A DNA stretch of 64,000 bases. Origin: Marinoscillum sp. 108 (GTDB lineage Bacteria; Bacteroidota; Bacteroidia; Cytophagales; Cyclobacteriaceae). The position numbers were made by a program, and so were the translations under genes. Shown one piece after another: positions 4,512 to 10,531 of the stretch. Under the pieces are notes generated by a model. The model was not told the origin of the DNA. It saw only the letters and a list, made by a program, of their open reading frames with translations, and searched no databases. The DNA lies in assembly GCF_902506655.1 (NCBI RefSeq), contig NZ_LR734817.1:275667-339666 (forward strand). Reading direction: 5' to 3'. How positions within the stretch are numbered: the stretch's first letter is position 1; the number at the start of each line of letters is the position of its first letter.

Positions 4512-5416
4512 GCTTCCGTCTTTTGCGTTAAGCGATGAAAAATTTCTTCCAGTGACTGCTGTGATTTGGTGAGGCTCACCAACGGCAGGTCATTTTCGGA
4601 GGTGATCCGAAGGAGCTCCGCCCTCAGGTCTGAGCGATCAGACTCAATCAAATAGGCGCTGGCCCCAAAAGGCTGAGGCTCGAAACCGGCTTGTATAAAC
4701 ACGCTCTGATCTACGGGTTGCTCAAATTCGATGATTATTCCATTGGTATGATTGAGTCCCTCTTTGAGCACAGATAGCTGATCATTGGCCACGAGCTCAC
4801 CACGATCGATGATCACCACATGGTCGCATATAGCCTCCACCTCCTGCATGATGTGGGTGGAAAGGATCACCGTTTTGTCCACGCTAATGTCTTTGATCAC
4901 CTGACGAATTTCCAAAATCTGATTGGGATCGAGGCCCGATGTGGGCTCATCCAGGATAAGTACTTTGGGGTTATGAATCAGGGCTTTGGCCAAGCCCACT
5001 CGTTGGCGATACCCCTTCGAAAGGGCACTGAGTCGCTTGCCACGCTCCCGCTGCAGTCCCACGAGCTCAATCATTTCGTCCACCCGCTTGCCTGCGCTTT
5101 TCAGTCCATAGGCACTGGCTATGAATCGCAGAAACTCCCTGACGTACATATCCAGATACAAGGAATTATGCTCCGGCAAATAGCCGGTGAGTGCCTTGGT
5201 TTGGAGGGGGTGATCTGTCACATCCAGTCCTTCTATCAGCACCTGACCAGCTGTAGGCCGGATATACCCGGTGGCCATTTTCATGGTGGTGGACTTTCCT
5301 GCACCATTAGGACCCAAAAAGCCGGTAATTCGCCCCTTTTCAGCTTCGAAAGAAATATCGCTGACTGCCCGCTGTGTCCCGAAGACTTTTGTTAATTGCT
5401 GGATAGATACGGCCAT
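4508..5416 (-). CDS. gldA: GldA-type ABC transporter ATP-binding protein
   Basis: The 302-residue ATPase has Walker A GPNGAGKS at residues 35-42, a signature-like LSALSKGYRQR near 135, Walker B LILDEPTSGLDP near 155 and the switch His in LSTHIMQEVE. Length and domain order match GldA, a nucleotide-binding domain plus a C-terminal extension of about 80 residues. It follows the SDR gene by five bases and overlaps gldF by four. It powers the GldF/GldG complex. Other ABC-2 ATPases share these motifs, but the three-gene order gives the specific call. Confidence 0.9.
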   Translation of the reverse strand: MAVSIQQLTKVFGTQRAVSDISFEAEKGRITGFLGPNGAGKSTTMKMATGYIRPTAGQVLIEGLDVTDHPLQTKALTGYLPEHNSLYLDMYVREFLRFIASAYGLKSAGKRVDEMIELVGLQRERGKRLSALSKGYRQRVGLAKALIHNPKVLILDEPTSGLDPNQILEIRQVIKDISVDKTVILSTHIMQEVEAICDHVVIIDRGELVANDQLSVLKEGLNHTNGIIIEFEQPVDQSVFIQAGFEPQPFGASAYLIESDRSDLRAELLRITSENDLPLVSLTKSQQSLEEIFHRLTQKTEA

Positions 5417-5421
5417 AGATT

Positions 5422-6123
5422 TTACTGCTTGCCTTTTGGTCTGAGTGGTCTGAGTTCCAAATCTACAGGAAGATAATTAGGATGTGTATTTAAAAGATCA
5501 ATCACTGACTTAGCTACGTCTTCCGGGCGCATCATGTTGTCATTGGCGGCTATGGAATCTATCTGATCGAAGAATCCGGTCTTGATGCTCCCCGGATAAA
5601 CATTGGTGACTTTGATGCCCCAGTCCCGCAGCTCCATCATCAGGGAGTGGCCAAACCCACGCACTGCGTGCTTGGTGGCTACATAACCGCTCATGTTTTT
5701 CACACCGTTGAGACCGGCAATCGAGCTGATATTGACGATATGGCCCTGATCCATCTTTTTCATTTGGGGCACCACCATTTTGGTACAGTACATCAGGCCG
5801 TGTACATTCACATCAAACATTCCTTTCCAGTCTTCCACATTCAGTTCGTCCACGGGCCCCATCACCCCATATCCGGCGTTATTGATGAGGATGTGAATCT
5901 CTGACCCCATGCGGGAAACGGACTCCCGATAGGCGCTGGCCACCGAATCAAAATCCGCCACATCAGTTTCTATAAAATGAAAGTGGTCATCCATCAGCTC
6001 CGGCTGAGACCTGCTCCAGCCGGCTACCTCCACGCCTGCATCCAGTAGCTGCCGGGCCATTTCCAATCCTATTCCTTTACTCACTCCTGTCACTATGGCT
6101 CTCTTACCCTTCAAATGCTCCAT
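5422..6123 (-). CDS. Short-chain dehydrogenase/reductase (SDR)
   Basis: This is a classical SDR of 233 residues. The cofactor loop TGVSKGIG is at residues 12-19, NNAG near 81-84, the catalytic Ser in NISSIAG near 133-134, and the YxxxK pair is Y147/K151. An Asp/Glu pair (ETDVAD) lies after the second strand. It probably reduces a carbonyl with NAD(P)H in the cytoplasm; the substrate cannot be predicted. It is the first gene of the minus-strand run, five bases ahead of gldA, but has no evident functional link to the transporter. A purine-rich CAGGAGA stretch precedes the ATG. The upstream 200 bp separate it from the divergent SIR2 gene. Confidence 0.9.
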   Translation of the reverse strand: MEHLKGKRAIVTGVSKGIGLEMARQLLDAGVEVAGWSRSQPELMDDHFHFIETDVADFDSVASAYRESVSRMGSEIHILINNAGYGVMGPVDELNVEDWKGMFDVNVHGLMYCTKMVVPQMKKMDQGHIVNISSIAGLNGVKNMSGYVATKHAVRGFGHSLMMELRDWGIKVTNVYPGSIKTGFFDQIDSIAANDNMMRPEDVAKSVIDLLNTHPNYLPVDLELRPLRPKGKQ

Positions 6124-6328
6124 TCTCCTGTTTGATTTTAACTAAACGCAATATTGTTGGTTTTTATTCTTATCTGAAACAGTCGGGGGGCATTTCTGTT
6201 TGGGTGTGGTTCAAATGCATATACTAAAAATACGTTACCTTTTTTTCCAACACCATAGTTAAGGGTATGAATAAATAATCGATCGTTCAATCACTGAGAC
6301 AATAATCAGACTTAACTATCTTTCCCGT

Positions 6329-9300
6329 ATGATCCGTTTTGAAGAATCTTTAGTTCGGCAGATTGAAATAATCAAAAAGGCTGCTAATGCAGGAAAGCTT
6401 GTTCTTTTCGTTGGAGCCGGGGTTTCTCAAAATTCAGGAATACCTGGCTGGGGGCATTTAACTGAAGAGTTGAGGAAAGATTTAACTGGCATACCTCCTG
6501 GTGAGTATAGTGCTCAAGTTATTGCCCAAATGTATTTCAATAAATTTGGAAAAAGAGCGTATACGGATAAGGTTCAGCGAATTCTAAATACTGAAAGCAA
6601 ACAGCCAAACCCTATTCACAACCTCCTCTTTGACCTGAATCCCAGACACATTTTAACAACAAACTTTGATAATTTGATTGAATTATCGGCCTATGAAAAC
6701 CAGCACCCTTTTTCCGTAGTATCACAGGACACAGAGTTACCTACAGCTGAATACATACAACTAATTATCAAAGTTCACGGAGATTTTTCAAATGGCGGTG
6801 AGAACATTGTGCTAAAGGAAGATGATTACCTGAGCTACCCAAGAAAATACCCTTTGATCAAAAGTTACATTGAATCTCTTTTTGCTTCAAGTGTGATTCT
6901 TTTTATCGGCTATGGCTATAAGGATGATAACCTGAAACAAATCATTGATCAGGTTCGGGTCTATTTAGGTGACGATTCCCATCAAGCCTATCTCATCAGA
7001 CCTGAACCAACAGATAATCAAATAGAACTGGATTACTTCGATAAGAAAAACATCCAGGTGATCTCCTATTTTGATGATATGTGGAATTACCTGAAATCAG
7101 GAAACCCTCATGATCAACCCCTCAATATTGAGGTAAACGGAATTGAAGGGATAGGTTTAAACTTATTCAAAATACTGAATTTCATCTCCAAATTTGATCC
7201 AGAGGTTTATAGGCTGTCTTTTGAAAATGTAGTGAATCAAAGTTTGACGGCAATAGGAAACTTGAACAAACAACTGGCATTTATTCCTCCATTTCATCTG
7301 ATGAATATCTTTCCCTTCAACAAAGGTCAGCTGAAATGGTCGTATGTCGATGATTATAATTATGATAGAAGTAACTATTCACTTACTACCAAAAACAGTG
7401 AATTGCTTAGTCTATTTGCAGCCATTAAAACTGATAAAAATGGGCATTTCAAGGGGGTTAGTTCCAAATTCATAAAAAATATTCTACCCCAAAAACTTAC
7501 TCCGGAAGCCGAGAAAGCCTTTAGTGAGAAATTGAATTCGGACGTTTCAGCCCTTATCAATGCATTGAACAAAAACTTGATTTATGATCTCCCTATTTCA
7601 GCTGCCCAAAATACGTCTAGTGGCAAAAAAAGAATTACTTACAAGATTGAAAACCAACTCACAGATTGCCACAGTCTTTTCTTCAAATTTCAGTTTTCAA
7701 AGTCTTTCGAAATTGCATATTCCAATAATTCAATAAAATTAACTGCTCAAGAGTATTTAGAACATGGATATACTTTTTATCAATTTCGAGATTACAAAAG
7801 AGCCTGTATAGAGTTTCAAAATGCCTCGAGAATCGCATGGAAGCAGAAACTTTACATCATATATATAATCGCCTCAATGAATATCAAGAGGTTATTAAAA
7901 AGTGTGGATTTTGACCGAGATACGACAGGTGGAGATTCAACAAAAACATTTATTGAAAATGCCATTAATCAGTCTGGTGTCAGGCACCTCCATGAGACGG
8001 CCTTTAGTCTGGATGTGTCGCTAACTGAACGTGAAATAATCAGATACCTCATTGAGGATAATATGTCAGATTCAGTTAGCAACAAGGTAAGAAAGTCCCT
8101 TTTTGAGGTTAGAAAATTACCCTCTACGTACTCAGATAGTCATTTGTCTCTAACTTATGAGATTAACTCGCTTTTTGTACACCTGAATGCGAATTGCATC
8201 ATATATGATCACTATACGAATTTTAAAAATCTGGTTCGTGATGCATTCGAATCATACTGTCTGAACTATTCAAAATCCAATCCAAAAACTCAATTTGAAA
8301 TTTTCTATCTGGAAATTGCTATTCTCTATATCTCCTATCTGGATGTTAGTGATATTTTATCCGATTCCCTAATTGAGAGAATAAATATCGATGAGAACAA
8401 TATCTCTGGATTCATTCAAATAATTAATGATTTACTTGAATCCAGCTACATAACAAATGAGTTCGGGAAAGTATCATCCAACAATTTTAATGATGATAAG
8501 GTGATGTTCGGCTTCAAGGATCGATTGTCGCAGATGATCAATACATCCCTAGCACTAATGGCCAAAATCGATATTGATTCGAGTCATTTTGAGCTTTTAA
8601 CAAATCCAATTCTGCATGTAATCCAATTGATGAGAAGGCATGAACTAAAGCACGTTTCAGGGGTCTTATTAAAGCATCAGGAAGCATTCAGTAATATTCA
8701 ATTAGAAACTATACTTCTAAACTTATTGGATCATGACATATGGGCTTATAATTCCATTTATTCTGTCATTAATATACTTAAAGAAAGGGATGAGAATTAT
8801 AAAATAAAGCGGGCGGATATATTAGATAAAATACGTAGTTTGGATTTTAAAGGTGAGCAAGGCTTACCATTTCGTCTGTATGAAATAACCGATATAGAAA
8901 TCAAGCATTTTATTAAAGAGGTGATTGAGAATAGAATGAAAGAAACATTTCATGAAGATGATTATAAAAGTGCGGTAATCTCTGACATTGTTGAGCCCTC
9001 CTTATACCTATCACCATACCTGCAAAGAATCTTAGGAAATACAGATAAGCGAGAAACAATAATCAATCATTGGCATTACCGATTCATTATTGAGCATTTG
9101 ATCGAACGACTTCACCTTGAAAATTTATTTCAAAATGAACTAAATGAGCTTTTAGAAAACTCCGATTATTTTTCTTGGCTGTATAAACCTGAAGCTTTCA
9201 ATTACGAAAGGTTCGATAAGGAATGGCTAAACTTTGAAAGGTCAGATTGGTTTATCAGCAGAATTAAAAATGTGGATATTTTGAAGGAAAAAGTCCAAGA

Positions 9301-9361
9301 AATTGCAGAAACAGATCAAGATAAGGAACTCGCCTATTTTTTCACTTGCCATTTATCCTAA
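6329..9361 (+). CDS. Large SIR2-domain protein, candidate antiphage NADase (defence-associated sirtuin type)
   Basis: The 1010-residue protein has an N-terminal SIR2 domain over about 250 residues: GAGVSQNSG from residue 30, TTNFD at 110-114 (N112 the likely catalytic Asn), KVHGD with H150 as the likely catalytic His, and GYGYKDDN at 194-201. The remaining 750 residues have no family I recognise. They look alpha-helical, with a TPR-like stretch near 471-510 (YLEHGYTFYQFRDYKRAC). Length and layout resemble the defence-associated sirtuins DSR1/DSR2, which deplete NAD+ on phage infection. The gene is clearly more AT-rich than its neighbours, which suggests transfer. It stands alone, divergent from the SDR gene and 11 bases before an unrelated esterase. 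Identification of the SIR2 domain is secure; the defence role is inferred. Confidence 0.85.
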   Translation: MIRFEESLVRQIEIIKKAANAGKLVLFVGAGVSQNSGIPGWGHLTEELRKDLTGIPPGEYSAQVIAQMYFNKFGKRAYTDKVQRILNTESKQPNPIHNLLFDLNPRHILTTNFDNLIELSAYENQHPFSVVSQDTELPTAEYIQLIIKVHGDFSNGGENIVLKEDDYLSYPRKYPLIKSYIESLFASSVILFIGYGYKDDNLKQIIDQVRVYLGDDSHQAYLIRPEPTDNQIELDYFDKKNIQVISYFDDMWNYLKSGNPHDQPLNIEVNGIEGIGLNLFKILNFISKFDPEVYRLSFENVVNQSLTAIGNLNKQLAFIPPFHLMNIFPFNKGQLKWSYVDDYNYDRSNYSLTTKNSELLSLFAAIKTDKNGHFKGVSSKFIKNILPQKLTPEAEKAFSEKLNSDVSALINALNKNLIYDLPISAAQNTSSGKKRITYKIENQLTDCHSLFFKFQFSKSFEIAYSNNSIKLTAQEYLEHGYTFYQFRDYKRACIEFQNASRIAWKQKLYIIYIIASMNIKRLLKSVDFDRDTTGGDSTKTFIENAINQSGVRHLHETAFSLDVSLTEREIIRYLIEDNMSDSVSNKVRKSLFEVRKLPSTYSDSHLSLTYEINSLFVHLNANCIIYDHYTNFKNLVRDAFESYCLNYSKSNPKTQFEIFYLEIAILYISYLDVSDILSDSLIERINIDENNISGFIQIINDLLESSYITNEFGKVSSNNFNDDKVMFGFKDRLSQMINTSLALMAKIDIDSSHFELLTNPILHVIQLMRRHELKHVSGVLLKHQEAFSNIQLETILLNLLDHDIWAYNSIYSVINILKERDENYKIKRADILDKIRSLDFKGEQGLPFRLYEITDIEIKHFIKEVIENRMKETFHEDDYKSAVISDIVEPSLYLSPYLQRILGNTDKRETIINHWHYRFIIEHLIERLHLENLFQNELNELLENSDYFSWLYKPEAFNYERFDKEWLNFERSDWFISRIKNVDILKEKVQEIAETDQDKELAYFFTCHLS

Positions 9362-9372
9362 AATCACTCACT

Positions 9373-10182
9373 ATGAACCGATCGCTTACCTCCTTCCTAC
9401 TCCTACTTTGCAGCCTGGCATGCCTTGCACAGGAATACACCACCCTGACCAATCTCCCCTATAGAAATCAAACGGAGCGGAACAGTGATCCTTACATTTC
9501 GGAGCGCTGTGTCCTGGACCTCTATCACCCTGCCTCCAGTGGATTTGCCACGGTCATCTGGTTTCATGGCGGAGGGCTCACCGGAGGGAATAAGGAGTTA
9601 CCGGAGGCTCTCCAACAAAAAAACATCGCCATTGTGGGTGTCAACTATCGGCTCAGCCCAAAAGTCAGGGCTGCCACCTGCATAGAGGATGCTGCCGCGG
9701 CGGTAGCCTGGGTGTTTAAAAACATTGAACAGTACGGTGGAGATCCGTCAAAAATCTTTGTCTCCGGACACTCTGCCGGGGGATACCTGGCCAGTATGGT
9801 AGGACTGGACAAGAAATACCTGCAGGCCTACGGGATAGACGCCAATGACATTGCCGGACTCATTCCTTTCAGTGGTCATACCATCACGCATTTCACCATA
9901 CGTGAAGAACGTGGCATCCCCGGACATCAGGCGATCGTGGATGAGTTGGCCCCTCTTTATCATGTACGGGCGGATGCTCCCCCCTTGCTGCTCATCACCG
10001 GTGACCGGGAGCTGGAAATGCTCGGGAGATATGAGGAAAATGCCTACATGATGCGCATGATGAAGGTGGCCGGCCATCAGCAAACCACCTTGTATGAGAT
10101 GGATGGTTACGGGCACGGCATGACCTACCCGGCGTTTCCGCTGCTCCTGAACGAGGTGAAGCGAATTGTTGAGGAAAAATAG
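9373..10182 (+). CDS. Secreted alpha/beta hydrolase (esterase/lipase family)
   Basis: I chose the ATG at 9373 because it opens a clean signal peptide (MNRSLTSFLLLLCSLACLAQ). An in-frame upstream start at 9346 would overlap the SIR2 gene and spoil that signal. The mature part has the HGGG oxyanion motif, the nucleophile elbow GHSAGG, an acidic residue in LLITGDRELE and the catalytic His in GYGHGM. These are the marks of hormone-sensitive-lipase-like esterases/carboxylesterases. It probably acts in the periplasm or outside on small esters. Base composition returns to that of the surrounding chromosome here, so it is probably not part of the SIR2 unit despite the 11-base gap. Confidence 0.85.
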   Translation: MNRSLTSFLLLLCSLACLAQEYTTLTNLPYRNQTERNSDPYISERCVLDLYHPASSGFATVIWFHGGGLTGGNKELPEALQQKNIAIVGVNYRLSPKVRAATCIEDAAAAVAWVFKNIEQYGGDPSKIFVSGHSAGGYLASMVGLDKKYLQAYGIDANDIAGLIPFSGHTITHFTIREERGIPGHQAIVDELAPLYHVRADAPPLLLITGDRELEMLGRYEENAYMMRMMKVAGHQQTTLYEMDGYGHGMTYPAFPLLLNEVKRIVEEK

Positions 10183-10243: not shown

Positions 10244-10531
10244 ATGAGCGGAGCAGGATTCACTAAAGACATGGTTAACTCCTCACGGGGCAACAGAACG
10301 CTCTTAAAGGGTAATGCCTCTGCTACATTCAATAATTTCGATAGGGAGGCCTATCAGATCAAACCAAAAAAAAGAAAAGCTCCCCAGTACAATCAAGCCT
10401 CCAAAGCTTATATGAAGCAGCTCAGAAATCAACTGTTGGCTGACAACCTACGAACCTCAAGAATCAGAAAGCTGGTGCTAGCAGGTTCAGTGATAACAGG
10501 GCTCATTCTGTTTTCATTGCTATTTCTTTAA
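10244..10531 (+). CDS. Small basic membrane protein of unknown function
   Basis: A 95-residue protein rich in Lys, Arg, Asn and Gln, with a single C-terminal membrane helix (LVLAGSVITGLILFSLLFL). The long soluble part would face the cytoplasm, as in tail-anchored proteins. It starts at an ATG 61 bases after the esterase and ends 55 bases before the J-domain gene, with which it may be co-transcribed. I do not recognise a family. The codon use and the matching direction of both neighbours support it as real. Confidence 0.65.
   Translation: MSGAGFTKDMVNSSRGNRTLLKGNASATFNNFDREAYQIKPKKRKAPQYNQASKAYMKQLRNQLLADNLRTSRIRKLVLAGSVITGLILFSLLFL

What the first reader, a model, noticed from the sequence alone, without database searches (positions are those of the whole stretch)
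6329..9361. AT-rich single-gene SIR2 protein with an uncharacterised 750-residue helical part
Seen: intact SIR2 catalytic motifs (N112, H150) and a C-terminal region of unknown family with a TPR-like patch. The gene is compositionally unlike its neighbours and sits alone between housekeeping-type genes. Known: DSR1/DSR2-type proteins of about 1000 residues, ThsA and SIR2-HerA use SIR2 NADase domains against phage. Inference: this is a stand-alone NADase defence gene, possibly a new sensor subtype because the C-terminal part is unrecognised.
Basis: partly seen in the sequence, partly recalled or inferred. Interest (0 to 1): 0.72.

Follow-up and report, generated by a model that had tools for sequence, protein, structure and literature searches.

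The report
DSR2-like phage alarm with swappable effectors
The gene most likely makes a phage-defence protein that destroys the cell's NAD+ when its long sensor end meets a phage protein, and the same kind of sensor end is found in other bacteria joined to quite different toxic enzymes.

Summary
The ORF is real: 6329-9361, 1010 aa, 34.9% GC against 47.3% around it. Its N-terminus is a SIR2 NADase-type domain; N112 and H150 align with DSR2 N133 and H171 (E 7e-48). The C-terminal 750 residues are not an unknown family: a profile of ten such C-termini, no DSR2 among them, finds Bacillus subtilis DSR2 in the PDB (E 2e-10, 562 positions). The protein is a very divergent member of the DSR2 superfamily. 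It lacks the hydrophobic loop with which B. subtilis DSR2 grips tail tube protein, so its trigger is open. With an esterase gene it stands where 5 of 5 congeners have an FMN-reductase gene. AT-richness is usual in the family (58 of 60 genes). The surprise: of 22 sensor loci from sensor-only searches, 16 carry no SIR2 but MmeI-type, Mrr-like, DUF4365-like, SMEK, PIN-like, TIR or DUF3037-like domains, or none (with the window's own C-terminus as query: 4 of 9). No PADLOC model and no paper that I found describes these forms. No structure could be predicted (queue full at 23 attempts); function is inferred.

The parts
6329..9361 (+). SIR2-sensor protein, 1010 aa, DSR2 superfamily (with stop codon)
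6329..7069 (+). SIR2 NADase-type domain, residues 1-247
   Evidence: phmmer match of residues 5-246 to DSR2 chains, E 7e-48; Pfam SIR2_2
6449..6451 (+). codon of W41, aligned with DSR2 W59 of the nicotinamide pocket
   Evidence: alignment; role of W59 from PMC10981675 (passages)
6662..6664 (+). codon of N112, aligned with catalytic N133 of DSR2
6776..6778 (+). codon of H150, aligned with catalytic H171 of DSR2
7205..9358 (+). shared sensor region, residues 293-1010; homologous to the DSR2 region behind its SIR2 domain (best supported for DSR2 residues 427-1004) and to the C-termini of proteins with other N-terminal domains
9188..9229 (+). best conserved stretch near the end of the sensor, residues 954-967 (PEAFNYERFDKEWL), aligned with PENFDYKKFIPSWL of DSR2
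5422..6123 (-). short-chain dehydrogenase gene, left flank, kept in this place in 4 of 5 congeners (the fifth keeps the next gene, the ABC ATPase)
9373..10182 (+). alpha/beta-hydrolase (BD-FAE type) gene, 11 bp behind the SIR2 gene if its ATG is the start; close copies (71-75% identity) lie elsewhere in 3 of 5 congeners
10244..10531 (+). 95-aa ORF, right flank; homologues next to the lactonase gene in 3 of 5 congeners

Best explanation
A single-gene abortive-infection defence of the DSR2 superfamily. Shown by sequence: an intact SIR2 NADase-type domain in front of a 700-residue sensor region homologous to that of DSR2. Inferred from DSR2: the protein assembles through its SIR2 domains, is silent at rest, and is switched on when a phage structural protein binds the sensor; it then hydrolyses NAD+ and stops the cell. 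The phage protein need not be a tail tube: the loop that B. subtilis DSR2 uses for its main hydrophobic tube contact is missing here. The sensor is a module that in relatives is joined to other domains (nuclease-type, TIR, PIN-like), so the sensor, not the NADase, defines the family.
For: SIR2 match to DSR2 chains E 7e-48 with catalytic Asn and His kept; same length (1010 against 1005). Profile of ten C-termini (window included, no DSR2) finds DSR2 at 2e-10, profile positions 178-739; hhalign of five SIR2-type C-termini against the Priestia DSR2 C-terminus: probability 98.4, E 1e-14; two unrelated proteins as controls: probability 0.6 and 0.1, E 0.09 and 0.5. Same sensor on other N-termini: hhalign of SIR2-type against non-SIR2-type C-termini, probability 100, E 1e-71 over 704 columns. 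Neighbours of non-SIR2 relatives, chosen by eye, include LmuB, two type IIG restriction enzymes, methylases and a pPIWI-associated nuclease. Patchy presence: of 58 other relatives searched with the whole protein 3 match, and those in the SIR2 part only; the locus differs from 5 of 5 congeners.
Against: No structure, no activity, no phage data. The window protein alone gives only 4.4 bits against the DSR2 C-terminus, so the sensor homology rests on profiles at about 20% identity. The five non-SIR2 C-termini alone find no PDB chain up to E 1. No defence gene among the five window neighbours scanned. The tube-contact loop is absent.
Confidence: 0.85

Rival explanations
1. The protein senses a phage tail tube protein exactly as B. 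subtilis DSR2 does.
For: Homologous sensor region of the same length.
Against: The loop with L495/L497/L498 of DSR2 (role from PMC11087589 section 8) is seen in L018, L130 and L131 of 49 aligned rows, not in the window protein; L114, L122, L132 and L140 have loops of similar length but other sequence. Sensor identity to the nearest rows is about 21%.
Confidence: 0.3
2. A Thoeris-type ThsA effector switched on by a nucleotide signal made by a partner.
For: Best PADLOC match is ThsA, E 2.5e-33, residues 11-242.
Against: The match covers the SIR2 domain only; the rest matches DSR2 and no SLOG model; no TIR protein among the five neighbours scanned; 1010 residues, not about 480.
Confidence: 0.05
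3. A housekeeping protein deacylase (CobB-like sirtuin) with an extra helical part.
For: Weak matches to NCBIfam deacylase models (best E 1.5e-5, 24.7 bits against a cut-off of 221).
Against: SIR2_2 type; the nearest solved relatives are DSR2, then ThsA-type chains; not found in 5 of 5 congeners apart from the separate SIR2 protein of G005.
Confidence: 0.03
4. A degenerate or silent horizontally acquired gene.
For: Long lone branch; stands in place of a resident gene.
Against: Intact 1010-codon frame and catalytic residues kept; low GC is normal for the family.
Confidence: 0.07

Closest known systems
DSR2 of Bacillus subtilis (defense-associated sirtuin 2; PDB 8k98 and others)
   Same: N-terminal SIR2 NADase domain with the same catalytic residues; homologous sensor region behind it; same length
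   Different: Sensor only about 16-20% identical; tube-contact loop absent; trigger unknown; this branch was found in Bacteroidota
ThsA of Thoeris
   Same: SIR2 domain
   Different: No SLOG match, no partner gene recognised among the neighbours scanned, twice as long
Short pAgo systems (SPARSA, SPARTA, SPARDA)
   Same: There too one recognition part is joined to SIR2, TIR, SMEK or DUF4365 domains (PMC10810196 and PMC10474274, start of abstract in a search listing); the sensor here is joined to SIR2, TIR, SMEK and DUF4365 types
   Different: No Argonaute or APAZ match in any sensor protein scanned
Avs/AVAST proteins
   Same: Would work like them: kept sensor, exchangeable N-terminal effector (recalled)
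   Different: No STAND ATPase match in the sensor proteins scanned
DSR1 as modelled by NCBIfam NF041818
   Same: SIR2 part only
   Different: 18.7 bits against a cut-off of 1400; C-terminus not matched

Membership tests
DSR2 superfamily (SIR2 plus DSR2-type sensor) | N-terminal SIR2 domain with catalytic Asn and His | tested here: met
DSR2 superfamily (SIR2 plus DSR2-type sensor) | C-terminal sensor region homologous to that of DSR2 | tested here: met
   profile to DSR2 chain E 2e-10, hhalign E 1e-14, controls negative; the single sequence alone gives 4.4 bits
DSR2 superfamily (SIR2 plus DSR2-type sensor) | same fold and tetramer | not tested
   Structure prediction answered busy at all 23 attempts
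DSR2 proper (tail-tube sensor of the B. subtilis type) | hydrophobic tube-contact loop (L495/L497/L498) | tested here: not met
   seen in L018, L130, L131 of 49 rows, not in the window protein
DSR2 proper (tail-tube sensor of the B. subtilis type) | activation by monomeric tail tube protein, then NAD+ loss | not testable with these tools
   needs experiment
NCBIfam Dsr1 (NF041818) | score above the curated cut-off | tested here: not met
   18.7 bits against 1400
Thoeris ThsA | SIR2 domain of ThsA type | tested here: met
Thoeris ThsA | C-terminal SLOG domain | tested here: not met
   no Pfam match after residue 245; the region matches DSR2
Thoeris ThsA | neighbouring TIR-domain gene ThsB | tested here: inconclusive
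   none among the five window proteins scanned; the whole window was not scanned

The most novel reading that the evidence does not exclude
DSR2 is one branch of a large, undescribed family of phage sensors. Its helical sensor module has been joined, by repeated exchange of the N-terminal domain at the SIR2/helix boundary, to at least seven other kinds of domain (MmeI-type and Mrr-like nucleases, DUF4365-like, SMEK, PIN-like, TIR, DUF3037-like with a HipA-like kinase gene) and once stands alone beside genes with EAD11 matches. The window protein is a lone SIR2-bearing lineage that falls, with weak support, at the base of the mixed nuclease/TIR/PIN group and likely reads a phage ligand other than the known tail tube.
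Probability: 0.7. Interest if true: 0.78.

Novelty: new variant of a known kind. Interest (0 to 1): 0.62.

Why it matters
The passages that I saw of five DSR2 structure papers treat DSR2 as a SIR2 system. If its sensor is a general module, a set of single-gene defences that the 2023 PADLOC library does not model (no full-length match for any of 10 non-SIR2 or sensor-only proteins scanned) becomes predictable: same way of sensing, different way of killing. It also makes a question testable: which part of the sensor sets phage specificity, and does sensor binding drive a nuclease or TIR domain by the same movement that opens SIR2?

Tried and rejected
Search of genome contigs with six exact peptides of the window protein found no relative (8 stretches matched, none confirmed). 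The five non-SIR2 C-termini alone found no PDB chain; their link to DSR2 rests (probability 93.4, E 2.6e-7). PDB searches for the Mrr-like, PIN-like and DUF4365-like N-termini gave nothing useful; the names Mrr-like and PIN-like are mine, by motif recalled, without library support. L008, L016, L082 and L185 were dropped as chance matches, by their short or patchy match and the look of the ORF; only L008 and L016 were also tested. L084 and L187 were dropped as fragments. With the whole window protein, 317 plasmid and 2 phage records match, none over 80% of it. Plasmid searches with one Bacillota and two nuclease-type sensors found nothing and the Hymenobacter plasmid again. Viral contigs: two SIR2 relatives, and an MmeI-type protein without the sensor. 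A Bacteroidota promoter pattern (recalled) upstream of the gene gave no hit. Low GC as proof of recent arrival was rejected.

Full report
Observation. The window lies in contig C10 of a 5.2-Mb genome. It holds one intact 1010-codon gene at 6329-9361 with 34.9% GC against 47.3%. The SIR2 part matches Pfam SIR2_2 and the solved chains of B. subtilis DSR2 (E 7e-48, residues 5-246), then ThsA-type and other chains. N112 and H150 align with DSR2 N133 and H171, D114 with D135 and W41 with W59; these four DSR2 residues are reported as important for activity (PMC10981675 passages, PMC11087589 section). In an alignment of 48 rows N112, H150 and W41 are invariant; D114 is not (L090, L092 and L093 have Glu).

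What the C-terminal part is. The best stretches of all Pfam, NCBIfam and PADLOC matches lie within residues 1-247. Searches of whole genomes with residues 251-1010 found C-terminal relatives, some full-length. A profile of ten C-termini, the window's among them and no DSR2, finds the DSR2 chains at E 2e-10, profile positions 178-739, DSR2 residues 427-1004. hhalign of five SIR2-type C-termini against that of a Priestia plasmid protein (L018), itself a plain DSR2 (1254 bits over its full length), gives probability 98.4, E 1e-14. Two chance proteins as controls gave 0.6 and 0.1. Against this: the window protein alone scores 4.4 bits on the DSR2 C-terminus, and the five non-SIR2 C-termini alone find no PDB chain, so the case is a profile case. 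Among ORFs of all loci then fetched, 92 hit the sensor profile at E 1e-3 or better, from Bacteroidota to Bacillota and L018 itself; this number holds fragments and the window's own copies; 66 of the 92 carry the TTN-[YFW]-D motif. Published DSR2 domains are helix-turn-helix 301-400, helix bundle 410-547, HEAT repeats 548-858, C-terminal domain 859-1005 (PMC11263360 passages). The region shared by SIR2 and non-SIR2 proteins begins near window residue 293, at the SIR2/helix boundary.

Membership and trigger. Both parts place the protein in the DSR2 superfamily. It should not be filed as a B. subtilis-type tail-tube sensor: the loop that carries L495/L497/L498, whose mutation stops complex formation (PMC11087589 section 8), is seen in L018, L130 and L131 of 49 aligned rows and not in the window protein; four others (L114, L122, L132, L140) have loops of similar length with other sequence. 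In sensor trees the window protein has the longest end branch (2.49) or one of the two longest (2.15) and is at most 21% identical to any row. In one search it falls at the base of the mixed nuclease/TIR/PIN group, weakly (80/84); its place is open. The trees used the proteins fetched, not all that exist (one search kept 80 of 305).

The sensor is shared by other N-termini. Five sensor-only searches (395, 390, 395, 360 and 355 genomes, overlapping, window genome included) gave, apart from the window genome, 22 sensor loci after dropping four chance matches (L008, L016, L082, L185) and two fragments (L084, L187). Six carry SIR2 (L009, L010, L012, L013, L015 with an in-frame TAG, L079). Sixteen do not: MmeI-type (L011, the second gene in L020, L076, L077, L183), Mrr-like (L007, L078), DUF4365-like (L006, L080, L188), PIN-like (L184, L191), TIR (L186), SMEK (L081, cut by the contig end), DUF3037-like (L014, with a HipA_2 gene just upstream), and one without effector (L083). 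A caution: the last three searches used a profile with five SIR2 and five non-SIR2 rows, so their share is not neutral; with the window's own C-terminus as query the first look gave L009, L010, L012, L013, L015 with SIR2 and L006, L007, L011, L014 without. A further MmeI-type protein lies on a complete Hymenobacter plasmid as one annotated gene (L017). Strength of the names: at or above the Pfam cut-off for L006 (DUF4365), L011, L017, L076 and L020 (MmeI_N, the last exactly at it), L081 (SMEK_N, 106.9 bits), L186 (TIR_2, 44.2 against 28) and HipA_2 (39 against 27). Below it or by relation only: DUF3037 in L014 (16.3 against 22.6), L183 (14.2 against 27), L077 (52% identical to L076), L080 (BLASTP 2e-7 to L006 in a single comparison). 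By eye only: Mrr-like (L007 and L078 share 44% over 152 residues), PIN-like, L188. The MmeI-type domain keeps D93, E113 and K115 of a D...ExK motif in 5 of 5 aligned (motif recalled). SIR2-type against non-SIR2-type C-termini: probability 100, E 1e-71 over 704 columns. In the tree of 41 sensors nine labels need nine changes, the least possible being eight, and DUF4365-like and Mrr-like rows do not form groups of their own; many long branches make single placements unsure. L083 stands between two genes with EAD11 matches (downstream 42.9 bits against 26; upstream 20, below the cut-off).

Defence context. Neighbours of non-SIR2 relatives, picked by eye from ORF lists and scanned, include a Lamassu-type LmuB and a methylase (L024), type IIG restriction enzymes (L171, L172), a pPIWI-associated nuclease (L020), a dynamin-DUF4365 protein with LeoBC match, an MBL-fold and a patatin protein (L174), a STAND-type NTPase protein (L183) and a C5 methylase (L191). 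Near L019 and L173 nothing evident was seen and nothing was scanned; near L014/L027 only the HipA_2 gene was scanned; neighbours of L081, L184, L186 and L188 were not scanned. This is association in a chosen sample. PADLOC gave no full-length match for any of ten non-SIR2 or sensor-only proteins nor for L006, L007, L011, L014 and L017.

How it came here. In 5 of 5 congeners the ABC exporter genes and the lactonase gene keep their order, four keep the SDR gene, and none has the SIR2 gene there; G005 has a different SIR2 protein elsewhere. All five have an FMN_red-type gene at this place; the window genome has no match to it anywhere (family call on the G005 copy). So the SIR2 and esterase genes stand where the FMN-reductase gene is in relatives; whether by one event is not known. 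Low GC is a family trait: 58 of 60 sensor-bearing ORFs of at least 850 aa with at least 6 kb of flank have lower GC than the flank, 44 by more than 5 points, median 8 points; most of these are SIR2-type proteins.

Literature. Nine searches of the open library, seen as listings, and passages or sections of the five DSR2 structure papers and of one review showed no mention of DSR2-type sensors on other effectors. Subscription papers and preprints are mostly not held (the Garb 2022 paper is not), so 'undescribed' is limited to that.

Mechanism. Shown: domain make-up, kept active site, homology of the sensor, the sensor on other N-termini. Inferred from DSR2: rest state, phage-protein trigger, NAD+ loss, cell arrest. 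Open: the trigger, the oligomer, whether nuclease and TIR relatives are driven the same way.

Noticed in passing
L020:2117-4750 and 4795-7692: Two sensor proteins in tandem in one genome, one Mrr-like and one MmeI-type, followed by a pPIWI-associated nuclease gene.
   Followed up: partly
L168:8436-12769: Sensor protein without effector between two genes with EAD11 matches (one below the cut-off): the sensor may recruit its effector through adaptor domains.
   Followed up: partly
L184, L186, L188 (genome G521): One genome carries three sensor proteins with three different N-termini: PIN-like, TIR and DUF4365-like.
   Followed up: partly
L079, L099, L102, L104, L106: Five SIR2-sensor proteins of about 1175-1195 aa have an extra N-terminal domain of about 150 residues with no Pfam match in the two scanned (L079, L102).
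   Followed up: partly
L099 against L102: A Woesearchaeota MAG contig and an Owenweeksia MAG carry much the same gene (end branches 0.14 and 0.13): contamination or recent transfer.
   Followed up: no
L123, L129, L139: SIR2 match and sensor lie in separate neighbouring ORFs: frameshifts or true two-gene forms.
   Followed up: no
NCBIfam NF041818/NF041819: The curated Dsr1 and Dsr2 models do not reach a plain B. subtilis-type DSR2 (L018); library names and structure-paper names do not cover the same proteins.
   Followed up: partly
window 9373-10182: The esterase gene behind the SIR2 gene is also out of place: its close copies lie elsewhere in 3 of 5 congeners.
   Followed up: partly
L022 (Flectobacillus): A SIR2-type relative has a recombinase-like ORF just downstream and one with nearly the same start a few kb further on, by eye: a likely mobile element.
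   Followed up: no
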